64,000 bases of DNA. Source: Paracoccus sp. SCSIO 75233. Lineage in GTDB: Bacteria > Pseudomonadota > Alphaproteobacteria > Rhodobacterales > Rhodobacteraceae. The stretch is from contig NZ_CP115757.1 of the NCBI RefSeq assembly GCF_027912675.1, positions 310,001 through 374,000 of the forward strand, given 5' to 3'. A program made the position numbers and the translations under genes. This document shows, piece by piece, positions 3,097 through 27,269 of the stretch; the first letter of the stretch is position 1; every line of letters starts with the position of its first letter. A model generated the notes under the pieces. That model was not told the origin of the DNA and made no database searches. It worked only from the letters and a program-made list of their open reading frames with translations.

Positions 3097-4636
3097 TCAG
3101 GCGGCCTCCCCGGTCGAACGCCCAGAACAGGGCGAAGCTGATCGCCATCAGAATCACGGCGCAGGCGGCTGCGTCGGTCATCCGGTAGCTGTTCATGAGC
3201 TGGTAGAGTTTCAGCGGCAGGGTCGGGTTTTCGCTGTCTGCAAAGAGTGTGATCACACCCAGATCGCCCATTGCGAGCGCCGCCGACAGCCCGCCTGCGA
3301 AGCCCAGGGGCCGGGCGAGGCGGGGCAGGGTCAGGTAGCGCATCCGGGCGAAACCCCGCATGTTCAGCGAGGCCGCAAGCCGTCCGTAATCTGTAAACAG
3401 CGCATACACAGCGGGCAGCAGAATGCGCAGCGCAAAAGGCAGCGCCATGACGGCATTGATGATGACCGTGACCGGCAAGGCAAGCTCCGAAGGCGAAGCA
3501 ACATTGCGCAGCAGCAGGTACAGCCCGGTGCCAAGCACCAGTGGCGAGGCGACGAGGGGCAGCATCCCGGTGATCTCGATCCAGCGGCGACCGCGCGCGA
3601 TTGACAGGGCGAGCGACAGCGTCAGCGCAAGGGTCAGGAAAGCGGATATCAGCGCCATGAGGATGGAGCGGAAGGCGGCCTCCCAGACCGGGCCGGGCAG
3701 GGCGGCAATGCGCGGCGCGCCTTGCAGTATGACGGACAGCATTGGCAGCAGCAGGAAGGCGGCGGCGAGCGCGATCATGGCGGCGTCTGCCGCGACACGC
3801 CAGCCGCGTGGCCCCCGGATCGGGGCGTCGCGGTCCATGCCCGCGCCGAACCCGGCGGGGATGGCGACCCGCGATGACAGCGCGAGGGCGAGCAGGCACA
3901 GCGCGACCTGAATAAGCGCCAGCGTTGCCGCCTTGCCCATGTCGAAATCAAATCGGAACGCCTGATAGATCGCCAGCTCGACCGTTGTGGCGCGTGGTCC
4001 GCCGCCTAGGGCGAGCGCCACGGCAAACGAGGTCAGGCAGACGAGGAACACGGCCAGCCAGGCGCCCGGCAGCACGTCACGCAGCATGGGCCGTTCCAGA
4101 TGCCGTCCGGTATCGGCGGGCGAGAAGCCCAGCGATTCCGCCAGCCGGAAACGCTCTGACGGGATGGCCTGCCAGCCATGCAGGATCATGCGGATCGCCA
4201 GCGGCAGGTTAAAGAACACATGGGCGAGGATGACGCCCTGCCAGCCATAGATCGAGACCGGCGCGATGCCGAACCAGCCGAGCAGGTCATTCGCCAGACC
4301 GCTGCGCCCGAAGACGGTGACGAGCCCCATGATGGCGACGATCACCGGCAGGATGAAAGGGGCGCCCATAACGGTAATCAGCACCGTCCGGCCCGGAAAT
4401 CTGCGCCGTGCGAAGGCCCGCGCGACCGGGATTGCCAGACCGGCGGAGACGGTGGCGGAGACGACCGCCTGCCACAGCGTGAACCAGACGGCGCGCCAGT
4501 CCCAGACCTCCAGCCCGCCGAAGCCGCCGGAATAGACCGCGACAACCCCGAGCGTTCCCAGCACGAGCGCGACGAGCGCGCCCGCGGCCAGCGTGCCTGC
4601 CGGGTCCGCGCCTAGCGCGCGAAGACGTTCAGCCAT
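3083..4636 (-). CDS. thiP: Thiamine ABC transporter permease ThiP
   Basis: Inner-membrane permease of the thiamine importer, 517 residues. Two binding-protein-dependent transport domains are fused, each with about six membrane segments. The EAA-type loops that dock ThiQ are visible in each half, e.g. RFRLAESLGFSPADTGRHLE in the first and YGRLAASLNMRGFARMRYL in the second. The double-length architecture is characteristic of ThiP. It overlaps thiB by 25 bp and thiQ by 14 bp, so the three genes are translationally coupled. Confidence 0.94.
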   Translation of the reverse strand: MAERLRALGADPAGTLAAGALVALVLGTLGVVAVYSGGFGGLEVWDWRAVWFTLWQAVVSATVSAGLAIPVARAFARRRFPGRTVLITVMGAPFILPVIVAIMGLVTVFGRSGLANDLLGWFGIAPVSIYGWQGVILAHVFFNLPLAIRMILHGWQAIPSERFRLAESLGFSPADTGRHLERPMLRDVLPGAWLAVFLVCLTSFAVALALGGGPRATTVELAIYQAFRFDFDMGKAATLALIQVALCLLALALSSRVAIPAGFGAGMDRDAPIRGPRGWRVAADAAMIALAAAFLLLPMLSVILQGAPRIAALPGPVWEAAFRSILMALISAFLTLALTLSLALSIARGRRWIEITGMLPLVASPLVLGTGLYLLLRNVASPSELALPVTVIINAVMALPFALRILLPAVYALFTDYGRLAASLNMRGFARMRYLTLPRLARPLGFAGGLSAALAMGDLGVITLFADSENPTLPLKLYQLMNSYRMTDAAACAVILMAISFALFWAFDRGGRLNAEI

Positions 4637-5589
4637 TCATCGAGTGCCGGTTTGCGCAATGCCTCGGCATCGTCTTCATTCAGGAATATCGTCTTGTCGG
4701 GCCGGGGCAGGGCGGCGAAGTAATCCGGCAACTGATCGGCGGGCAGCTTGGACGGATAGGACCAGTTTGCCTCGGCAATCATGCCTTGGAAGTCTTCGGA
4801 CAGAATATAGTCCATGAATTTCTGCGCCAGTTCCGGCTGATCGCTGGTGGCAAGCTGGGCGGCAAGTTCGACCATGAAATAATGGCCTTCGGGGAAGATC
4901 GCGGCCTGCTTGGTCTCATCCTGTTCGGCACCGATATGATAGGCGGGTGAGGTGGTGTAGCTGAGGACCATATCCGCCTCGCCATCGGTGAACATGCCGT
5001 AGCTTTCCGACCATCCTGCAGTCACAGTCAGCACTTTCGGCTGAAGCTTCTCCCACGCCTCGGTCGCGCGGTCGCCATATACGGATTTCACCCAGAGCAG
5101 CAGGGCAAGGCCGGAAATCGAGCTGCGCGGATCCTGAATGACGATTTTCAGATCGTCCGGCGCGTTCAGCAATTCGTCGAAACTCGCGGGCGGATTTTCG
5201 AGCCGCGTGTTGTCATAGACGAAGGCGGTTTCGCCCCAGTTGAAGGGCAGGAACACATCGTCGGTCCATTCGACCGGCAGGGTCAGCCCGGACAGATCCT
5301 CGTTATGCGGCGCGAAAAGCCCGGTTTCGCGGGCGCGTTTCGTGACATCGGTGTTCAGGCCGATGACCGCATCCGCCGCTGTCTGCTCGCCTTCCAGCAG
5401 GATGCGGGGCAGCACGTCGCCGGTCACGAATTTCAGGTCGCAGTCGCAGATCGCCTCGAACCCTTCCTTGATCTTCGGGCCGGGTCCCCATTCGGAGGCG
5501 AAGTAATCGGGGGCGTAAACGGTGAACTCGGGACCCGCCGCCATTGCGGGCGTGGTCATCAGCAGCAGGGCCAGAACGGAATTCTTCAT
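4612..5589 (-). CDS. thiB: Thiamine ABC transporter substrate-binding protein ThiB
   Basis: Periplasmic thiamine/TPP-binding protein, 325 residues. A Sec signal peptide (MKNSVLALLLMTTPAMA) precedes a type 2 periplasmic-binding fold. Family-typical segments include FTVYAPDYFASEWGPG, LPVEWTDDVFLPFNWG and VLTVTAGWSESYGMFTDGEADMV-type text around residues 190-215. A strong Shine-Dalgarno (AGGAGG) precedes the start. It is first in thiBPQ, directly downstream of the TPP riboswitch, so it should be repressed when intracellular TPP is high. Confidence 0.95.
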   Translation of the reverse strand: MKNSVLALLLMTTPAMAAGPEFTVYAPDYFASEWGPGPKIKEGFEAICDCDLKFVTGDVLPRILLEGEQTAADAVIGLNTDVTKRARETGLFAPHNEDLSGLTLPVEWTDDVFLPFNWGETAFVYDNTRLENPPASFDELLNAPDDLKIVIQDPRSSISGLALLLWVKSVYGDRATEAWEKLQPKVLTVTAGWSESYGMFTDGEADMVLSYTTSPAYHIGAEQDETKQAAIFPEGHYFMVELAAQLATSDQPELAQKFMDYILSEDFQGMIAEANWSYPSKLPADQLPDYFAALPRPDKTIFLNEDDAEALRKPALDEWLNVFAR

Positions 5590-5625
5590 CGCTTCCTCCT
5601 TCTATGAATTACGGAAAGAAAGGGC

Positions 5626-5716
5626 AGCGAAACCTTCCCTCCGCCGGTGTTAGCCGGATCAGGTTCTACGGGTCCGCAAGATTGCGTCTCAGCCAAAGGC
5701 TCCCCGAGGCTCAGCC
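5626..5716 (-). promoter_or_regulatory. TPP (thi-box) riboswitch
   Basis: On the minus strand the aptamer reads CUCGGGGAGCC near 5710, GGCUGAGA near 5690, then ACCUGAUCCGGCUAACACCG around 5668-5649 and the thi-box end GCGGAGGGA around 5644. These are the conserved TPP-sensing helices in the right order and spacing, ending about 40 nt before the thiB start. The thiB ribosome-binding site follows closely, so control could act on translation. Edges are approximate. Confidence 0.93.
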
Positions 5717-17145: not shown

Positions 17146-17221
17146 GGGGCCATAGCTCAGTTGGTAGAGCGCATCGTTCGCAATGATGAGGTCAGGGGTT
17201 CGACTCCCCTTGGCTCCACCA
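17146..17221 (+). tRNA. tRNA-Ala (anticodon CGC)
   Basis: A 76-nt cloverleaf with encoded CCA. Acceptor stem GGGGCCA/TGGCTCC (one G-T pair), D-arm GCTCAGTTGGTAGAGC, anticodon arm CATCG-TTCGCAA-TGATG giving anticodon CGC for GCG codons, T-arm AGGGGTTCGACTCCCCT. Its 3' 18 nt plus two further bases are repeated at 27,250-27,269, so it is the integration target of the adjoining island and was rebuilt by it. Confidence 0.96.
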
Positions 17222-17223
17222 GT
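17204..17223 (+). repeat. attL core (20-bp direct repeat, copy 1)
   Basis: CTCCCCTTGGCTCCACCAGT spans the T-stem 3' strand, acceptor and CCA of tRNA-Ala plus GT. It is identical to 27,250-27,269 and is preceded by A here versus T there, so the repeat is exactly 20 bp. Confidence 0.9.
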
Positions 17224-17339: not shown

Positions 17340-17497
17340 CGCATTTCTCGACTAAGAAATCAATCAGCTTGCCGAAGAAGGCCAAACCATGCACAGCTTC
17401 CGCCATACAATGCGGGATCGTCTGAGGGATTTTGAAGCTTCTTCTAATGTCGCTGACGCGACTATTGGCTGGGCTGGAAAAAACGTAGGGTCAGGAC
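17340..17497 (+). pseudogene. Relict C-terminus of a tyrosine recombinase
   Basis: The translation around 17,389 reads MHSFRHTMRDRLRDFEA and then IGWAGKNVGSG, matching the catalytic H-x-x-R box and following helix of site-specific integrases. The N-terminal catalytic Arg region is absent: stops interrupt the frame upstream, and the final His/Tyr region is lost where the sequence changes abruptly near 17,497. This is a different integrase from the one at 25,841-27,174, so at least two elements have used this tRNA. Confidence 0.7.
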
Positions 17498-17512
17498 TCG
17501 TTCTTAATCATT

Positions 17513-18253
17513 GCCCCCCCGAACGCCGAGATTGCCATCGCCCCGGCACCGACCGGGCTGGAAGACGACGATATGCCGATGGGTGAGCTGGCGAATGCGG
17601 CAGCCCTTGATGCGATGGCTGAAGATGTCGCGCCGCCGATGCCGGAATCGACCATTGTTGCGGTGTCCGATGCCGACGCCGCCTCCGGGCTTGCAGCGGA
17701 AATTATTGGCGAGGATACGGCTGCCCTGTCCGAACTCGGGATCGTCGGTGCCGAGGATCAGGCGGCGGAGATGATGGACGAACCTGCCGCTGAAGCCGCC
17801 CCGGTTGCCGCAATTGCCGCGACCCGCCCGGCACGCCGCCCGGCGGCCATCGCCGCGCGTGCGCAGGCCGCGCTTGCAACTGCGACCGAAACCGTTGCCG
17901 CAACCGAAACCGCCGAGGCCGCCCCCGCCGCACGTCCCGAGGAGGCCCCGCAGGCCGTGGCAGAGGCCGAAGCGCCCGAACCCGCCCCGGCACAGGTCGC
18001 CTCCGGCGCGCCGCTGGTTCAGATCGGTGCATTCGATTCCGGCTCTATCGCGAACAGCGAATGGGGACGGATTTCGGGCCGCTTCTCGTCGCTCTTCTCC
18101 GGCAAATCGCCGGTTGTCCAGACGACGGAACGGAACGGCCGGACCTTCTACCGCCTCCGCGTCGCAGGCTTCGATTCACGCGACGATGCCCGCCGCTTCT
18201 GCGCCGCGCTGATCGCGGAAGGCACGGATTGCTACCCCGCCACCGCGCAATGA
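17513..18253 (+). pseudogene. 5'-truncated SPOR-domain protein gene
   Basis: An open frame of about 245 codons with no plausible native start. It enters from the left breakpoint as PPNAEIAIAPAP. A long Ala/Pro/Glu-rich linker leads to a C-terminal SPOR domain (~last 75 residues: PLVQIGAFDSGSIANSEWGR, RTFYRLRVAGF, DARRFCAALIAEGTDCYP), which binds denuded septal peptidoglycan. Members of this family carry an N-terminal transmembrane segment, missing here. An internal ATG at 17,573 could give a 226-residue cytosolic remnant without export. The stop overlaps nagZ (ATGA), the normal chromosomal arrangement. Confidence 0.8.
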
Positions 18254-19224
18254 CGACTGCTGCCATATTCGGGCTTTTGGGCACCGAACTCACCAGGGCC
18301 GAGCGGGATTTCTTCCGCTCGGCCGATCCTTGGGGGTTCATCCTGTTTGCCCGGAATATCGAAACCCCGGACCAGCTTCGCCGCCTGACCGGCGATCTGC
18401 GCGATGCGGTCGGACGGGACGCTGTGATCACAATCGATCAGGAGGGCGGACGGGTACAGCGGATGCGCGCGCCGCATTGGGCCGAGTGGACACCGCCGCT
18501 TGAGGACGCCGAAAACGGAGCGAAGGCGCTGCGTCTGCGCTATCGGCTGATCGGGCAGGAACTGCGCGCGGTCGGCATCGACAGCAATTGTGCGCCGACG
18601 CTTGATATCGCCTCCGACGAAACCCATCCGTTTCTGCAAAATCGCTGCCTTGGCCGGAATGTCGCGGATGTCGTGTCGCATGGCCGTGCCGTGGCAGAGG
18701 GGCTGTTGCAAGTCGGGGTACTGCCGGTGATGAAGCATATGCCGGGTCATGGCCGGGCGCGCGTCGACAGCCATTTCGAGACCCCCGCTGTCGCCGCGCC
18801 GCTGGCTGAGTTGACCGACACAGATTTCGCCCCGTTCCGCGCCCTGAACGATCTGCCCCTGGGGATGAGCGCGCATATCCGGTTCACGGAACTGGACGAT
18901 GCCCCGGCGACCGCCTCCGCCCGCATGATCGGGATCATCCGCGATGAGATCGGCTTTGACGGGCTGCTGATGACCGACGACATCTCGATGAACGGTCTGA
19001 GCGGCAGTATCGGCGAACGCAGCGCTGCGGCGATTGCGGCGGGTTGCGATCTGATCCTGCATTGCCACGGCGATATGGGCGAGATGGAGGAGGTCGTGGC
19101 GAATGCAGGCGCGATGACATCAGCCGCGCAGCGCCGTGGCGATGATGCACTCCGCCTGCGCGCGAAGAGGACGGTTGTGGCGAGAAGAATGGCTGAGAAG
19201 AAGGTCTCCGGGCAGCAGTCGTAG
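18250..19224 (+). pseudogene. nagZ: 3'-truncated beta-N-acetylhexosaminidase NagZ
   Basis: Cytosolic GH3 enzyme that removes GlcNAc from anhydro-muropeptides during cell-wall recycling. The start MTTAAIFGLLGTEL overlaps the SPOR stop. The GH3 core is intact: ITIDQEGGRVQRMR, KHMPGHGRARVDSHFE (catalytic His/Asp loop) and the nucleophile Asp in LMTDDISMNGL. Native sequence ends near residue 305 (...DDALRLR); the remaining ~19 residues are read out of a transposase relict on the other strand. Full-length alphaproteobacterial NagZ is ~330-340 residues, so about 30 are missing. Activity is possible but doubtful. Confidence 0.75.
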
Positions 19225-19945
19225 CGGGTCGCCACCCGTCTCCAGTCCTTGAGCCTGCCGAACATGATCTCGATACGGTTGCGGCGTTTGTATCGACGCT
19301 TGTCGTATTTGACGGACTTCTTGCGGGACTTCCGACCGGGGATTCAGACCCGTATCCTATTGTCTTTCAAGGCGTCTCTGAACCAGTCGGCATCATAGCC
19401 CCGGTCTACCATTAACTAATCGGCGTTCGGTGGGCTGCTCAACAGCACCGCCGCACCTTTGTAATCGCTGACTTGCCCGGCAGATGAAAACTGGATAGGG
19501 CGGCCCTTCGCATCGGTGGCGGGGTGCAGTTTGGTATTCATGCCGCCCTTCGTGCGACCTATCTGGCGAGCACGCTCCCCTTTTTAACCGCCAGGCTGGA
19601 GGCGGTGCGGTGCGCTTTCAGGTAAGTCGCGTCGATCATGATCGTCTTGTGTGCAGGTCCTTGGGCAGCCAGGCTCATCATGATCCGGGCGAAGACGCCG
19701 TTCTCGCTCCAGCGCTTCCAGCGGTTGTAGAGCGTCTTGGCGGGTCCGTACTCCCGGGTGCATCGCACCTCCGCAAACCATTGCGATTGATGAAGATTAT
19801 GCCGCTCAACACGCGTCGATCATCAACACGGGGCTTGCCGTGGGACTTCGGGAAATACGGCTGCAGATGCTCCATTCATTCATCCGTCAGCCAGAAAAGA
19901 TTGCTCATCAATCAGGTCTCCTTGCAGAGCCTGAATCACGGCAGA
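19163..19945 (-). pseudogene. Decayed IS5-family transposase
   Basis: On the minus strand the transposase starts MSNLFWLTDE, meets an in-frame stop, and resumes as MEHLQPYFPKSHGKPRVDDRR. Later pieces encode the DDE-fold text TIMIDATYLKAHRTAS and, near 19,200, RVATRYDCCPETFFSAIL, but in different frames with stops between. The left end lacks a terminal inverted repeat and joins nagZ directly at ~19,163, so a deletion followed insertion. Confidence 0.75.
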
Positions 19946-19975: not shown

Positions 19976-20335
19976 TCATGTTGACAAATGGCGGATCCAG
20001 AGACGGATCGACGTGATGTCAATGAAGCCGAGGAAGCTTTCCGCCGTCTTGTCGTAGCGGGTCGCGACACGCCTGGCGTTCTTGAGCTTGTTGAAGCAGC
20101 GTTCGACCAGATTACGCAGGCGATACAGCGAGCGATCGACACCAATCCGCTTCTTGCGGGACTTTCGCATCGGGATCACGGGCAGGACGTTGCGCGCTTC
20201 CATGCCGTCTCTGATCTTGTCTGCATCGTAGCCGCGATCCGCGAGCAGCACGCTCGGGCGGGGCAGATTATCCGCCATCACCAGATCGAAGCCGAGATAG
20301 TCCGACGTCTGGCCTGGCGTGATCTCTGTCCTCAT
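19976..20335 (-). CDS. IS427-like transposase, downstream frame (OrfB)
   Basis: 119 residues with the rest of the DDE catalytic core: second Asp in VLLADRGYDADKIRD and Glu in LRNLVERCFNKLKNARRVAT. It overlaps OrfA by 4 bp and is probably made only as the OrfAB fusion. Confidence 0.83.
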   Translation of the reverse strand: MRTEITPGQTSDYLGFDLVMADNLPRPSVLLADRGYDADKIRDGMEARNVLPVIPMRKSRKKRIGVDRSLYRLRNLVERCFNKLKNARRVATRYDKTAESFLGFIDITSIRLWIRHLST

Positions 20336-20763
20336 GGGAAGCCCGTGTGCATTGACGAGGAGGTGGATCTTGGTCGTAAAGCCACCTCGAGAACGGCCGA
20401 AACCCTGTCGTGGAGTCCCCCTTTAGCGCCCGCTGCCTGATGGTGGGCGCGGATTACGGTGCTGTCGATCATCTGCAGGGCGCTTGGCACAGCTCCGCTC
20501 TGGTTCAGTGCCTCCATGATGTCCTCCCAGAGCCCGGCCAACGTCCAGCGCCGGAATTGCCGATAGACGCTCGACCACTTGCCGAACTCCCCGGGAAGAT
20601 CGCGCCAAGGCGCCCCGGTTCGGGCAATCCAGAAAATCCCATCAAGAACGAGGCGGTGGTTGGTGGGTTTACGCCCGTTCGGGGCGCGGACGGCGAGGAT
20701 GAAGCGCTCAAAGAACGTCCATTCCTCGTCCGACATAAGGTCTCGTGCCAAGCTGGTCTCCAT
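20332..20763 (-). CDS. IS427-like transposase, upstream frame (OrfA)
   Basis: 143 residues: helical N-terminal DUF4096-like domain (LMSDEEWTFFERFI, NHRLVLDGIFWIARTGAPWR) and the first catalytic Asp in LQMIDSTVIRAHH. The frame ends shortly after KGGLHDR. Continuation into OrfB needs a -1 shift, the usual programmed frameshift of this group. Confidence 0.85.
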   Translation of the reverse strand: METSLARDLMSDEEWTFFERFILAVRAPNGRKPTNHRLVLDGIFWIARTGAPWRDLPGEFGKWSSVYRQFRRWTLAGLWEDIMEALNQSGAVPSALQMIDSTVIRAHHQAAGAKGGLHDRVSAVLEVALRPRSTSSSMHTGFP

Positions 20764-21692: not shown

Positions 21693-22229
21693 ATGTTTAG
21701 GTTATTATTTTTGTTACTTTCGTTGGTACTTCTAAACTCTTGCACAGTGAGCCTTTTTCCGGAATTTGACGCCAAAATAATCGAGAAGATAGAAGAGACC
21801 AATGATCAGGCGCAGGTATTATTTGCGACAGTTGAGCGTGGCTCCTCCGCTGCAGAATTCGCATCTTTGGAGCCTACATATAATGAAGTTCTTGGCGGTC
21901 TATCAGCTGTTTTGCTGCAAGTTGAGGCACGGCCGCAACCTGAAACTTCGGAGCGTCTTATAAACAGAATCGTCGGCCGCGAACGGATACAGGACCTCTG
22001 CCGCGAAAGCGAGGATGTGCCCGCTGACGATCCTCGAGCCTGTTTTTTGGTTGTGACGCCGTCTGCCTTAAAAGAGGCAAGAAAAAGCATTTCCGAGATG
22101 CGAAATGCCCATGAGCGCCTCGGACTCGGACCAGTTTTAGCCGAAAACTATAGAAACCTTTTCAATATTTCGATAGAGCAAGCGCTGACCGTAGAGGCCG
22201 CACTTGCAGTCAGCGCGGGAGGGATCTGA
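21693..22229 (+). CDS. Predicted lipoprotein, first gene of a three-gene cassette
   Basis: A 178-residue protein I do not recognise. MFRLLFLLLSLVLLNSC is a clear lipoprotein signal with lipobox LLNSC (Cys17). The mature part is mostly alpha-helical and acidic, with two further Cys flanking a short segment (LCRESEDVPADDPRACFLV, ~residues 108-126) that could form a disulphide in the periplasm. The C-terminal helices are amphipathic. The stop overlaps the next start (TGATG), so the two are coupled. The sequence is AT-richer than the core genome. Envelope-located; role unknown. Confidence 0.7.
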   Translation: MFRLLFLLLSLVLLNSCTVSLFPEFDAKIIEKIEETNDQAQVLFATVERGSSAAEFASLEPTYNEVLGGLSAVLLQVEARPQPETSERLINRIVGRERIQDLCRESEDVPADDPRACFLVVTPSALKEARKSISEMRNAHERLGLGPVLAENYRNLFNISIEQALTVEAALAVSAGGI

Positions 22230-22594
22230 TGAGCATCGAATTGGATAAAGTTGCCGATGATATCTACTCCAAGGTGAAGGAATCGCTGAATGATGACTGG
22301 GACACATTGAGTAATTTCCATAAATCTCAAGGCAGGAAATTGGCGCGTCAAGCCGCGCTTTTGGCCCAGCTAAAGTTGAGCGGGGAAGTGCCTCAAGGGG
22401 ATCCGATTTTTGAAACTCTAATCGAACAGTTCGAGGATGCCGCAAGAAACTTTGCTCAAGCCGTTGCGAACCTTACTGTACTGACGCTCCAGAATGCATG
22501 GAATGCAATCGCTAAAACGCTTTGGGGAGCAGTTAACGAGCTATTTTCCAAGGCAGGATTGGGTAATTTGCCGGTGCCGGGACTTGTTGTTTAG
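22229..22594 (+). CDS. Small helical protein of unknown function, second cassette gene
   Basis: A 121-residue protein, unrecognised. No signal peptide. It is predicted all-helical: an acidic N-terminal helix (MSIELDKVADDIYSKVKES), a central charged part and a hydrophobic amphipathic C-terminal helix pair (AQAVANLTVLTLQNAWNAIA, then WGAVNELFSKAGLG) ending in a Pro/Gly/Val tail. The C-terminal helix is hydrophobic enough to touch a membrane, but I would not call it a transmembrane segment with confidence. Coupled to the lipoprotein gene upstream; GH19-type gene 72 bp downstream. Confidence 0.65.
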   Translation: MSIELDKVADDIYSKVKESLNDDWDTLSNFHKSQGRKLARQAALLAQLKLSGEVPQGDPIFETLIEQFEDAARNFAQAVANLTVLTLQNAWNAIAKTLWGAVNELFSKAGLGNLPVPGLVV

Positions 22595-22666
22595 GCGCCC
22601 TGCTTCCTAATAACGCCGACGTGGGATAAATCGAGTTTATGGAAACTAGCAACGAGGAGCGAAGCC

Positions 22667-23533
22667 ATGATTGACCGCAAGACTTTCTACATCGCCTATC
22701 GAGAGGTCTACGGCAAGTTGCTCCAGTCGCAGGTTGATGGCTACGAGGCGATCCTTGATTTCTGGGACAGCCGCTCGGTGCTCACGGACCTGCGTTGGCT
22801 CGCGTATATCATGGCGACGGCCTTCCACGAAACTGGTCGCCGTATGCAGCCTGTGCGCGAGGGTTTCTGCCCCGACGACCCGTGCTCAGTGCGCGCGGTC
22901 GCGCGGCTCTACAACCAAGGACGCATCAAGACTAATTACGCGCTGCCGCACGCCAACGGGCACAGCTACTTCGGCCGCGGCTTGGTGCAGCTGACCTGGG
23001 GCCACAACTACAAGAAGGCTGGGCAGATGATCGGGCTGGGCGACGCGCTATACGACGAGCCGAGGCTGCTGCTGCGCATGGACGTCTCGGTCAAGGTGAT
23101 GATCGTGGGCATGCTGGTGGGCATCTTTGTGCCGGGCCACAACTTGGAGCGGCACTTCACCGCGACAAAGTCCGACTGGAAGAACGCGCGGCGGATCGTC
23201 AATGGTCTGGACAAATGGGAGTTGATCCAAGGCTACGCTCTCAACTTCTATGGCTTCCTGCGCCAAGCCGTGGGCGGGCCCGCTAACCAGCGCGACGTCG
23301 AGCGGGCGCTGCGCGACATGGAGGACGCGAGGCGCTCCGCCGACGGCGACCTGCTCGACATGAGCTTGGAGGAACTGTCCGAGCGCACCCGCTCAGCATC
23401 GCCCGTCTCGATCTACGACGGACCGGACGTCGAGTTGGGTGAGCGGTCGGCCGATTACGGCGACCTCATCGCCGAGGACCCGTCCGACGTTCGGCTGCTC
23501 GGCTACGACGAAGTGCATGGGGATGCGGACTGA
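22667..23533 (+). CDS. GH19-type chitinase/lysozyme-like glycoside hydrolase
   Basis: A 288-residue protein with an N-terminal GH19/endolysin-like domain (~1-200). Catalytic-site text is visible: MATAFHETGRRMQPVREGF with the expected acidic residues, then the substrate-cleft motif HSYFGRGLVQLTWGHNYKKA. The C-terminal ~85 residues are acidic and probably disordered. No signal peptide, so release would need a holin, lysis or another export route. GC-rich, with codon use unlike the two genes before it, suggesting a separate origin. It starts 72 bp after the small helical gene and may be co-transcribed with it. Phage endolysin-derived peptidoglycan hydrolase is the likeliest role; chitin is the alternative substrate. 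Confidence 0.75.
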   Translation: MIDRKTFYIAYREVYGKLLQSQVDGYEAILDFWDSRSVLTDLRWLAYIMATAFHETGRRMQPVREGFCPDDPCSVRAVARLYNQGRIKTNYALPHANGHSYFGRGLVQLTWGHNYKKAGQMIGLGDALYDEPRLLLRMDVSVKVMIVGMLVGIFVPGHNLERHFTATKSDWKNARRIVNGLDKWELIQGYALNFYGFLRQAVGGPANQRDVERALRDMEDARRSADGDLLDMSLEELSERTRSASPVSIYDGPDVELGERSADYGDLIAEDPSDVRLLGYDEVHGDAD

Positions 23534-23722: not shown

Positions 23723-24109
23723 TTAGGAAGCGGACTCATAAAACCGCATCCATAGTCGTGAGGATGCGAGTAGTATGGCAGCGAGGTAGTTTCGCGCTGT
23801 TTTCTCGTATCGGGTAGCGATCTTTCTGAAGTGTTTGAGCTTGTTGAAGAACCGTTCGACGAGGTTACGCTGGCGATAGAGCCTCTGATCGACGGAACGC
23901 TGGATCTTCCGGTCGCGCTGCGTGGGGATATGCCCCCGTCCGCCATGTGCGGAGATCAGTTCAAGGATGGCCCGGGCATCATAACCGCGATCGGCGACCA
24001 CATCACCGGGCGCGGGATGCGCAGCCAACAGATCGGCGACCGCGACCTTGTCGGAGGCTTGCCCCGGCGACAGCGTGATCGCCACCGGCAGGCCGCGATG
24101 GTCGACCAT
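23723..24109 (-). CDS. IS5-family transposase, downstream frame (OrfB)
   Basis: 128 residues with the second Asp in VVADRGYDARAIL and the Glu in RQRNLVERFFNKLKHFRKIA. The stop codon TAA at 23,725-23,723 lies wholly outside the IS: it is built from the TA target duplication plus the next host base, so where translation ends depends on the insertion site. Confidence 0.8.
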   Translation of the reverse strand: MVDHRGLPVAITLSPGQASDKVAVADLLAAHPAPGDVVADRGYDARAILELISAHGGRGHIPTQRDRKIQRSVDQRLYRQRNLVERFFNKLKHFRKIATRYEKTARNYLAAILLASSRLWMRFYESAS

Positions 24110-24559
24110 GGCGTTGATCTTGGTGCTCAGTCCGCCACGAGAACGACCGATGGCGTGATCTTCGCCCCCTTTTTACCCGAGGCCGCATGCTGGTGAGCCC
24201 GGATGATCGAACTGTCGATGAACTGCATGCTGTCGGGGGATTTCTCGGCAAGGGTTTCAAAGACCTGCAGCCAGACCCCGGCCTTTGCCCAACGGTTGAA
24301 GCGGTTGTAGACAGTGGTGTGGGGACCATATCGCCCGGGCAGATCACGCCAGGGCGATCCGGTCCTCAACACCCAGAAGATACCGTTGAGCACCCTCCGA
24401 TCATCCACCCGTGCTACACCGCGCGGCTTGTTGGGCAGAAGCGGTTGGATCACTGCCCATTCGAAGTCCGTCAGATCGAAACATGCCATGCTCACCTCTA
24501 TCAAAGAGAGTGAAGCATGAATAAACCTTGAGCGGAATCCTGTTTATGGGTTCAGAACC
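23726..24559 (-). mobile_element. Complete IS5-family insertion sequence, 834 bp
   Basis: Left end GGAAGCGGACTCATAAAA and right end (other strand) GGTTCTGAACCCATAAAC form an imperfect inverted repeat sharing the CATAAA core. TA flanks both ends (23,724-25 and 24,560-61). It carries two transposase frames and differs in sequence from the IS at 19,974. It interrupts a small minus-strand reading frame. Confidence 0.85.
24127..24489 (-). CDS. IS5-family transposase, upstream frame (OrfA)
   Basis: About 120 residues from MACFDLTDFEWAVIQPLLP; an in-frame start 15 bp upstream exists. DUF4096-like N-terminal domain (GIFWVLRTGSPWRDLPGRYG) and the first catalytic Asp in SMQFIDSSIIRAHQHA. The frame changes after SGKKGA, the usual frameshift zone. 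Confidence 0.83.
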   Translation of the reverse strand: MACFDLTDFEWAVIQPLLPNKPRGVARVDDRRVLNGIFWVLRTGSPWRDLPGRYGPHTTVYNRFNRWAKAGVWLQVFETLAEKSPDSMQFIDSSIIRAHQHAASGKKGAKITPSVVLVAD

Positions 24560-24841: not shown

Positions 24842-25537
24842 CTACTTCCTTGTTATAGTGGGTGTCGTGCCGACGATCTTCAAGAAGCTGTCCGAAAACA
24901 TCTGCTCTGCCAGCTCTGCCTGATCCTGCCGGACAATGAGGCTGTCATGGACGGGAAGGGCTGCAATGTCATGCTCCTTGCCCAGACGGAGAATGGCACC
25001 AATAAGCACCTTGCTTTCGGTGAACTGAAGGTCCGCCCAATCCAGCGTTCCGGGTTCCAGCTGGTGCAGGACACTGTGTCGTTTCAGGATTCTCTTTTGG
25101 ACCTCTTGGATCGGGTATTTTCGGCTGAACTGCTGTGGTGTTAGTTTGAGTTGCGCGCTCAGCTCCTGTCTGCCTTTCTGGGGCCATCTGTTGAGATAAT
25201 TTTCGCCTTTGCCAATCATTGCGGTGATGACGAGTTTGACGACGGGTCGCGGCAATCCCTCGAAAACATACGGGTCCCGTTCTGGTATGGCGTTGTGTAT
25301 CCACGCATAGAGAATGCTCAGATGGGATGCCTTGAGGTCCAGCTCAGTCACAGGCTCACCATCGATCCTGATTTTCTGTCGGTCATTCCGTGACATCTCT
25401 TGAAACTTCCCATAGAGACGCCCGCCCTTGTTGAAATCGAAGTTGTCTGCGTCTGCGTTGTTGAAGCAGCGATATATCTCGGGCGGATCCTTGCCCTCGA
25501 AACGATGCGCCTGATAAATACGCTTGATGTCCAACAC
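24842..25537 (-). CDS. Family-A DNA polymerase-like small protein of unknown function, possibly 5'-truncated
   Basis: A 231-residue protein (GTG at 25,537). The same frame is open to 25,585 and reads PCPDTPRVTQLQQQ before a TAG, so the N-terminus may be lost. I see three motifs like the palm/finger motifs of family A polymerases: motif A-like TELDLKASHLSILYAW (~residues 64-79), motif B-like RPVVKLVITAMIG with Arg/Lys spacing, and motif C-like ALPVHDSLIV. Both would-be catalytic Asp are kept. From memory, uncharacterised proteins with a GGRLYG...VELDYS...VHDS pattern are scattered among mobile elements. It is far too short for a normal PolA and has no visible exonuclease domain. Polymerase activity is inference. 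Confidence 0.6.
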   Translation of the reverse strand: MLDIKRIYQAHRFEGKDPPEIYRCFNNADADNFDFNKGGRLYGKFQEMSRNDRQKIRIDGEPVTELDLKASHLSILYAWIHNAIPERDPYVFEGLPRPVVKLVITAMIGKGENYLNRWPQKGRQELSAQLKLTPQQFSRKYPIQEVQKRILKRHSVLHQLEPGTLDWADLQFTESKVLIGAILRLGKEHDIAALPVHDSLIVRQDQAELAEQMFSDSFLKIVGTTPTITRK

Positions 25538-25840: not shown

Positions 25841-27174
25841 CTACTCCGCAGCCATCGGGGGGCTGCCGGAGATTGTCGGGTTCGCATCCTCCAAGGTCCA
25901 CCCTGCGTATTTCAGGTGAGCAAGAGCCTCCGCCTTGCGTTCCAGCGACGATCCCCCCGAGTACAGACCAAAGGTGATCGTCTTCTTTTCATGCCCGACA
26001 ATATCGGCAACGACACCCTCAGGCACCTCCGCGTTCTCAAGGATCGTCACAACTGTCTTTCGGATGCTGTGAAACACATGCGAACGTCCAAAGCCGTGAT
26101 CCTGCTTCAGTCGTCCGAACCTCTTCCCTATCGCCCCAGAACGCTGTCCGTATTTATCGGTTTCGAGGCCAGACAGTACATAGCCGTCTTTGCTATCGCG
26201 GCAGAGCCGTTCGAGCGTTGGCGCAAGCGAAGCGTGAATGGGGATCTCGCGTATTCCCTTCTGGGTTTTTGCTTCTATGATTTTCAGGCTGCGTTCCGAC
26301 ACATTCTCGACCCTCAACATACAGAGCTCTTCAATTCGGCAACCTGTCCACATGCCTAGCCTGATAAGGTCTGCCAACTGCTGATCCGGCTTACGGGCGC
26401 CTTGAACATGCCGAAGGAGCTTGAGAACGTCTACATCGCTGAACGGAACCCAACTGTCGCTTTGACTCTTGCCTTGGCTTTTCGATTGGTGCCCAAGCAC
26501 ATCGGCAAAGGGGTTATCGTCTCGATCTATGATCTCTCTGTCCTGCATGAAGCGCCAATACCCCCTGAGGGCTCCAAGCTTGCGCGTGATTGTTGCCCGC
26601 TTGAGGCCGGTTGCTTCAAGCTCGGTTGCCCAGCGCTTAACATGTTTCTTGGTAATCTTGTCGGTGGTTGGGAACTTTCCGGCGAACTCTTGAATATCCG
26701 ACCGTCGCATGTCTGCTGTCTTTGCCGTGACCTGATCGCTGTAAACGTTGAAATACGCATCAAGATGTTCCGTCGTGAGGATGAACTCACCGCGTACCAG
26801 CCCACGAAGACGATCTGCCAGTTCGGGGTCCTTTCTCGCAAGCGCGACGGCATGATCCTCAAGGGCGTCGTCATAGTCCATACGGTCTTCGGTGCCCGGC
26901 TTGGTGCCCAAATAATCCTGCCGCCATTCCATCGCCGTCGCGGAAAAGTCCATATCGAGTGGCGACCTTCCGGTTCTATAGGCTTCGAACTCGCTCAGAT
27001 ACGTTGCCGCAAGAGGCTTGGCGCGAATGACTGCCTCGGACCGGCTGTCAGTTTCCAAGGACCGAACTATACGTCTTTGCCATCATAAAACGGTCTAAGC
27101 TTCTTCGGAATGTCTAGGACAAAGTACCAGCGCCGTTTGCGCTTCTCGATGTAGTCGGCCACGGGGTTCCCCAC
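25841..27174 (-). pseudogene. Tyrosine recombinase/integrase of the island, one frameshift near the N-terminus
   Basis: The main frame (from 27,058 leftward, 405 codons) holds a SAM-like core-binding domain (~90-190) and the full catalytic domain: Arg in TGCRIEELCML, H-x-x-R in HSIRKTVVT, and the final His...Tyr in GHEKKTITFGLYSGG. Its first Met codon is only a TTG in mid-domain. Upstream, a second frame from a GTG at 27,174 (or 27,162) encodes NPVADYIEKRKRRWYFVLDI, the expected N-terminal strand, and reaches TAG after DGKDV. Adding one A to the AAA run at ~27,080 would join them as DGKRRIVRSLETDS. So the gene is frameshifted by one base, by mutation or sequencing error. Confidence 0.85.
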
Positions 27175-27197: not shown

Positions 27198-27249
27198 AAA
27201 AAATCATTTTATTCAATAGCGTTATCGCCTTATGTCCGACGATCTTCCT

Positions 27250-27269
27250 CTCCCCTTGGCTCCACCAGT
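27250..27269 (+). repeat. attR core (20-bp direct repeat, copy 2)
   Basis: Second copy of the tRNA-Ala 3' end, with no tRNA upstream of it. It marks the distal edge of the island, about 75 bp outside the integrase start. Confidence 0.9.

What the first reader, a model, noticed from the sequence alone, without database searches (positions are those of the whole stretch)
21693..23533. Unrecognised cassette: lipoprotein + small amphipathic helical protein + GH19-type wall hydrolase
Three consecutive plus-strand genes in the island. The first two are translationally coupled (TGATG) and have no family I recognise. The third is a signal-less endolysin/chitinase-like enzyme whose codon use differs from the other two. 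An outer-membrane lipoprotein, a small protein with a hydrophobic C-terminal helix and a wall hydrolase make a plausible envelope-attack or lysis module (effector, helper, spanin or immunity), carried by a tRNA island. The functional link is inference.
Basis: partly seen in the sequence, partly recalled or inferred. Interest (0 to 1): 0.7.

Follow-up and report, generated by a model that had tools for sequence, protein, structure and literature searches.

The report
Transferable lipoprotein and hairpin gene pair
Two of the three neighbouring genes are an undescribed and almost always paired lipoprotein and small helical protein that recur in distant bacteria, while the third, a phage-type wall-cutting enzyme, looks like an unrelated neighbour in a patchwork mobile island.

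Summary
A (178 aa lipoprotein) and B (121 aa) are a two-gene unit: a profile built without position information finds A directly upstream of B in 34 of 39 distinct B loci from Alpha-, Beta- and Gammaproteobacteria, and nowhere else in those stretches. Their trees agree (r 0.895). A is predicted as a lipid-anchored four-helix bundle, B as a two-helix hairpin. No family library matched either above chance level.

C is a phage-type GH19 endolysin with host-like GC3 (0.848; A 0.469, B 0.500). Five other family genomes with B lack a C relative; a sixth has weak ones on other contigs. Wall hydrolases were found near A-B in 6 of 39 loci, four lineages; the Rhizobium one occurs without A-B in a sister plasmid. 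All lie in a 10-kb tRNA-Ala island with matching 25-nt ends.

Best reading: A-B is a transferable two-part envelope trait and C an orphan endolysin beside it. What A-B does is inferred, not shown.

The parts
21693..22229 (+). Gene A: lipoprotein, 178 aa; predicted four-helix bundle after the lipobox (Cys17)
   Evidence: ORF; invariant Cys; AlphaFold model, mean pLDDT 81.8
22229..22594 (+). Gene B: 121 aa, no signal peptide; predicted two-helix hairpin (5-51, 59-109)
   Evidence: ORF and TGATG overlap with A; AlphaFold model, mean pLDDT 91.7
22667..23533 (+). Gene C: phage-type GH19 endolysin, 288 aa; judged a neighbour, not a partner
   Evidence: PF00182; PHROG 181 endolysin; phage relatives; GC3 0.848
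17146..17221 (+). tRNA-Ala (cgc), integration site of the island
   Evidence: ARAGORN, Rfam
17199..17223 (+). Left attachment repeat (3' end of tRNA-Ala)
   Evidence: direct repeat, 23 of 25
27245..27269 (+). Right attachment repeat
   Evidence: direct repeat, 23 of 25
25841..27058 (-). Tyrosine integrase of the island
   Evidence: PF00589 50.7 bits; PHROG integrase
19976..20763 (-). Transposase reading frames left of A (two frames; identified by eye)
   Evidence: ORFs; related to the right-hand copy, 72% over 131 nt
23723..24504 (-). Transposase reading frames right of C (two frames; identified by eye)
   Evidence: ORFs; repeat to the left copy

Best explanation
The finding is two separate things brought together in an IS-scarred tRNA-Ala island. 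(1) Shown: A and B are one co-inherited two-gene unit, found in roughly 1-2% of the proteobacterial genomes sampled; in most loci read it stands alone between unrelated genes, and by base composition it looks recently acquired here. (2) Shown: C is a phage-type GH19 endolysin with host-like codon use and without a conserved link to A-B. Inferred: A is lipid-anchored (no Asp at +2, so probably in the outer membrane) and presents a four-helix bundle to the periplasm; B is made in the cytoplasm without a signal and is an amphipathic hairpin that sits on the inner membrane; the two work as a pair at the envelope. Because the pair is rare, transferable and mostly self-sufficient, the likeliest role is an accessory protective or exclusion trait (against phage, wall-cutting enzymes or envelope stress) rather than attack or lysis. 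I put about 0.85 on the split between A-B and C and about 0.25 on the protective role; the figure below is for the account as a whole without the exact role.
For: A next to B in 34 of 39 loci with a non-circular profile, none elsewhere; the same eight plasmid records match Rhizobium A and Rhizobium B; tree distances correlate at 0.895, 0 of 2000 permutations as high; loci in three classes. Window B not found in 50,697 phage records; B and A not found in IMG/VR by pattern scans. C: GC3 contrast, phage relatives, five family A-B genomes without it. Rhizobium hydrolase without A-B in pRspNXC14a. Models of A and B; lipobox called in 33 of 34 A proteins, none with Asp at +2.
Against: Wall hydrolases do stand near A-B in four lineages, and 4 of 17 other B genomes have a weak GH19 relative somewhere against 7 of 139 family genomes, the window's included; these samples are not matched, but an excess is not excluded. 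The nearest A-B relatives (74-84% identity) could not be read for a third gene. Mirror trees may reflect shared descent alone. B's membrane position is weakly supported (hydrophobicity 0.71 in the window). Nothing tests a protective role.
Confidence: 0.6

Rival explanations
1. One reading: A-B-C is an envelope-attack or lysis cassette in which C cuts the wall and A and B serve as spanin, helper or immunity.
For: Same strand, 72 nt between B and C; C is a phage-type endolysin; A has a lipobox, as outer-membrane spanins do.
Against: C differs in GC3; no C relative near A-B except one distant GH19 domain in Rhizobium; five other family A-B genomes lack C; B has no N-terminal membrane anchor; no holin-like gene was noticed between B and the transposase.
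Confidence: 0.08
2. A-B is a helper for release or export of exchangeable signal-less wall hydrolases, working like a type 10 secretion or lysis cassette but with other parts.
For: Signal-less M15-SH3-GH19 beside A-B in Rhizobium, M15_3 in three Paraburkholderia loci, GH19 in the window; M23 in Glaciecola, though that one has an apparent signal peptide.
Against: 33 of 39 loci showed no hydrolase; the Rhizobium hydrolase occurs without A-B; no conserved small membrane protein beside A-B was seen in the neighbourhoods read.
Confidence: 0.1
3. A-B is an immunity module against wall-cutting or lipase effectors, kept as an orphan immunity in most genomes.
For: Hydrolases next to A-B in four lineages; a lipase or alpha/beta hydrolase beside it in others; standalone copies fit orphan immunity; A would sit in the periplasm where such effectors act.
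Against: Two strictly paired genes, one without a signal peptide, are unusual for immunity (general knowledge); neighbouring enzymes belong to unrelated families.
Confidence: 0.12
4. B is a phasin-like granule or membrane-surface protein and A an incidental neighbour.
For: One source names a relative (P0027) a phasin; B is a small amphipathic helical protein.
Against: No Pfam match for window B at E up to 1; A is next to B in 34 of 39 loci.
Confidence: 0.06

Closest known systems
Phage GH19 endolysins, e.g. PaGH19Lys of a Pseudomonas cryptic prophage and the GH19 protein of Ruegeria phage vB_RpoS-V18 (for gene C only)
   Same: GH19 domain, no signal peptide, both invariant glutamates (E55, E65); 43.6% identity to the Ruegeria phage protein over residues 2-202.
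   Different: Stands alone beside a transposase instead of in a phage lysis region; longer C-terminal tail not covered by the phage matches.
Phage spanin pairs (inner-membrane plus outer-membrane lipoprotein spanin)
   Same: Two small adjacent genes, one a lipoprotein.
   Different: B has no N-terminal membrane anchor; A is a globular four-helix bundle by prediction; the pair was not found in the viral collections searched.
Type 10 secretion / lysis cassettes (holin, endopeptidase, spanins)
   Same: M15-type peptidases and a lipoprotein gene near each other in Rhizobium and Paraburkholderia.
   Different: No holin-like partner conserved with A-B; most A-B loci without a hydrolase. Papers on these systems seen only as a search listing with abstract starts.
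Superinfection-exclusion or surface-exclusion lipoproteins (recalled; e.g. Ltp, seen in a listing)
   Same: Small accessory lipoprotein on mobile DNA.
   Different: A-B is a two-gene unit outside the viral collections searched; no sequence comparison with these proteins was made.

Membership tests
Phage-type GH19 endolysin (gene C) | GH19 domain above the curated cut-off | tested here: met
   PF00182 30.9 bits, cut-off 25.5; PHROG 181 E 5.7e-24
Phage-type GH19 endolysin (gene C) | Two catalytic glutamates | tested here: met
   E55 and E65 fall in the two invariant Glu columns of nine aligned GH19 proteins; PaGH19Lys pair E51/E60 from PMC12329726 section 12, not itself in the alignment
Phage-type GH19 endolysin (gene C) | Lies in a phage lysis region | tested here: not met
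   A-B upstream, transposase frames downstream; relatives do lie among phage genes
Spanin pair (A-B) | Outer-membrane partner is a lipoprotein | tested here: met
   Cys invariant; box called in 33 of 34
Spanin pair (A-B) | Inner-membrane partner with an N-terminal membrane anchor | tested here: not met
   Most hydrophobic 19-residue stretch of window B is 0.71, at residue 76; in 17 B proteins it lies in the C-terminal half
Spanin pair (A-B) | Encoded by phages | tested here: not met
   Window B: no match in 50,697 phage records; B and A: none in IMG/VR pattern scans; A not searched in the phage records
Phasin (B) | Match to a Pfam phasin family | tested here: not met
   No Pfam family for window B at E up to 1; the name comes from one source label
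Known defence systems (A, B) | Match to a PADLOC model | tested here: inconclusive
   Only chance-level hits: A to PtuA E 0.026, B to HEAT-ARM_XIII E 0.0075, 11.7 bits; none for L002, L003 and L011 proteins at E up to 0.05
Type 10 secretion or lysis cassette | Holin beside the hydrolase and lipoprotein | tested here: inconclusive
   None noticed by eye between B and the transposase or in the neighbourhoods read; no holin profile search was run on them
Known folds (A, B) | Clear match to a solved structure | tested here: inconclusive

The most novel reading that the evidence does not exclude
A-B is an undescribed, transferable two-protein envelope system of Proteobacteria: an outer-membrane four-helix lipoprotein and an inner-face helical hairpin that together act on, export or guard against exchangeable wall hydrolases and lipases, of which the GH19, M15 and M23 enzymes beside some copies are examples.
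Probability: 0.15. Interest if true: 0.75.

Novelty: new variant of a known kind. Interest (0 to 1): 0.42.

Why it matters
A lipoprotein-hairpin pair without a family name, kept together across three classes of Proteobacteria, gives a defined two-gene target for finding a hidden envelope function. It also warns against reading function from island neighbours: the striking wall enzyme is probably a chance neighbour, while the real partner is the small gene that overlaps the lipoprotein. The novelty label is a compromise: the families are undescribed, but paired envelope lipoproteins as a kind are known and the mechanism is not shown.

Tried and rejected
Family searches of A and B in Pfam, PHROGs, NCBIfam and PADLOC and against PDB sequences gave only chance-level hits; the strongest were PADLOC HEAT-ARM_XIII for B (E 0.0075) and NCBIfam ZorA2 for a Shewanella B (E 0.02), both far below any cut-off. 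Window B in plasmids and phages: no match. First genome-contig scan with profile A3: no relatives; the second, allowed because the first found nothing, used the broader 112-aa group and gave 19 loci. IMG/VR: none for B or A, one distant C relative. Structural second look: generic helical proteins; the plain Foldseek searches were never accepted, so the viral structure library was not searched. Empty-site test in two same-genus genomes: inconclusive, because matches to the tRNA and to the neighbouring oxidoreductase lie on different contigs. Hydrolase neighbours were sought with five queries plus Pfam on 25 selected neighbour proteins (5, 10, 10), so some may be missed. The mirror-tree test had no species-tree control. 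Six locus tags of relatives occur in no held paper; no wider literature search for the pair was possible without a name.

Full report
What is in the sequence. The three ORFs are at the stated coordinates and strand, with a TGATG overlap between A and B. A is a lipoprotein by its N-terminus; B has no signal peptide. C has a GH19 domain above Pfam's cut-off and matches the PHROG endolysin family. GC3 is 0.469 for A, 0.500 for B and 0.848 for C; dapD in the same window has 0.811. The region lies between a 25-nt repeat of the tRNA-Ala 3' end (17199-17223) and a copy at 27245-27269 (23 of 25), with a tyrosine integrase inside the right end. Reading frames that I take by eye for transposases lie on both sides; the two copies are 72% alike over 131 nt, so they are not a matched composite transposon.

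A and B are one unit. One-sequence searches gave 11 proteins for B and 8 for A, the window's own included. An A homologue on a Rhizobium plasmid is followed by a B homologue. With it the B profile reached 67 proteins, and a broader group gave 19 genome loci: Amphritea, Ningiella, Glaciecola, Colwellia, Shewanella, Microbulbifer, Chitinimonas and several MAGs. Paraburkholderia plasmids carry it too. Whole-genome searches found B in 6 of 295 and 4 of 394 genomes of the family, 9 of 385 of the class, 3 of 398 of the phylum and 4 of 369 of the class of G778; the samples overlap, and all but the last include the window's genome. Some of these hits are weak, and one genome (G1311) had two partial matches that I did not follow.

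Test of linkage. I held 41 loci with B. Two were contigs already held (L049 = L018, L057 = L022), leaving 39, the window included. To avoid circularity I built an A profile from the window's A and seven proteins found by sequence alone and ran it over 2785 ORFs of at least 60 aa from those loci. It gave 29 hits at E<1e-3, each directly upstream of B. After adding hits and repeating, 34 of 39 loci had A next to B, and the best hit anywhere else had E 0.099. L002 was found through A, so it is not an independent case, and the seven Microbulbifer loci are close kin. The five without A: L006 (contig starts 105 bases before B), L012 (only the end of A remains), and L048, L053 and L056, which are among the weaker B hits. 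Rhizobium A and Rhizobium B match the same eight plasmid records. In 34 pairs the A and B tree distances correlate at r 0.895; none of 2000 permutations reached that, highest 0.46. This fits a working pair, but common descent alone could give it.

What A and B look like. AlphaFold gives B as helices 5-51 and 59-109, mean pLDDT 91.7. A has a signal and then helices 27-47, 53-78, 114-143 and 147-174, mostly above pLDDT 90, with a poorly predicted middle. Structural comparison gave only generic helical proteins. The most hydrophobic stretch of B lies in its C-terminal half and is weak in the window (0.71; range 0.71-2.05 in 17 proteins), so I read B as a soluble or membrane-surface hairpin. A lipobox was called in 33 of 34 A proteins, none with Asp after the Cys; the one not called is the window's LNSC, and in L013 and L055 the script took an earlier Cys. 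Outer-membrane sorting follows the +2 rule (recalled).

C is something else. Its best phage matches are Ruegeria phages, 43.6% over residues 2-202; on an Agrobacterium plasmid a relative follows phage tail genes and precedes a holin. In the family 7 of 139 genomes have a relative, the window's included. Of the six other neighbourhoods, L074 and L075 look by eye like phage lysis regions, L072 and L073 phage-like, L070 and L071 not obviously so. Of 17 other genomes with B, four (G1344, G1533, G625, G467) have a weak GH19 relative (E 2e-7 to 3e-4), always on a contig other than that of A-B; the five other family genomes have none. C keeps both invariant glutamates, E55 and E65, in an alignment of nine GH19 proteins. 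PaGH19Lys, a GH19 muramidase of a cryptic prophage, has its pair at E51 and E60 (PMC12329726: outline with abstract, sections 7 and 12 read).

Is there a looser link between A-B and wall enzymes? With five hydrolase queries, hydrolases appear in the window, in Rhizobium (M15-SH3-GH19 upstream, DUF2272 further up), in three Paraburkholderia loci (M15_3) and in Glaciecola (M23): 6 of 39 loci, four lineages. Against a fixed link, the Rhizobium hydrolase is 96% identical over its last 179 residues to one on pRspNXC14a, where DNA identity ends 12 bases past the stop codon and no A or B was found. Neighbours elsewhere include asparaginase, RNase E, a sulphate transporter, a TonB receptor and a GNAT enzyme. 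For a link: 4 of 17 B genomes with some GH19 relative is a higher fraction than 7 of 139, though the samples are not matched, and two of the four (L080, L082) resemble the Rhizobium GH19 domain. I therefore reject a fixed cassette but leave a loose functional theme open.

Conclusion. A-B is a real, undescribed, transferable two-gene unit that most likely works at the envelope; C is a separate phage-type gene. A protective or exclusion role is the reading I favour, at about 0.25, from distribution and anatomy alone; immunity and export-helper readings are not excluded.

Noticed in passing
window 4557-4650 (-): ARAGORN calls a tRNA-Pyl here; Rfam's tRNA family finds only the tRNA-Ala in the window, so it is probably a false call.
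   Followed up: partly
window 5619-5716 (-): TPP riboswitch, 70.6 bits.
   Followed up: no
window 17389-19262: By eye, a small frame like the C-terminal end of a tyrosine recombinase beside the tRNA, then SPOR-domain and beta-hexosaminidase (nagZ-like) genes that run up to a repeat shared with the transposases (19218-19262): more than one insertion event at this tRNA seems likely.
   Followed up: no
window 24842-25537 (-): Gene matching PHROG 4756 (unknown function, E 1.4e-32) next to the integrase; by eye polymerase-like. It may mark a small satellite or prophage remnant.
   Followed up: no
window 21693-22229: The database copy of window A (P0012) is 160 aa, 18 residues shorter, which removes the lipobox; relatives support the longer start.
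   Followed up: partly
L003, L004, L005 (Paraburkholderia plasmids): Upstream of A-B stands a CHAT-domain gene (L003: PF12770 90 bits; PADLOC SAVED_CHAT E 4.9e-19; homologues in L004 and L005), after a metallophosphatase in L003; an SGNH-like gene follows B in L003 and L005 and is a remnant in L004.
   Followed up: partly
L006, L023, L002 and Microbulbifer loci: Lipase or alpha/beta-hydrolase genes lie near A-B: Lipase_3 (L006), DUF900 (L023), an alpha/beta hydrolase in L002. Five of seven Microbulbifer loci share an upstream gene without a Pfam match.
   Followed up: partly
L085 and L086: GH19 genes related to the Rhizobium M15-GH19 protein sit near other hydrolase genes (patatin-like phospholipase, papain-like protease, amidase) and similar-looking membrane proteins in Rhizobium sp. 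NXC14 and Caballeronia: possibly an unrelated hydrolase island.
   Followed up: partly
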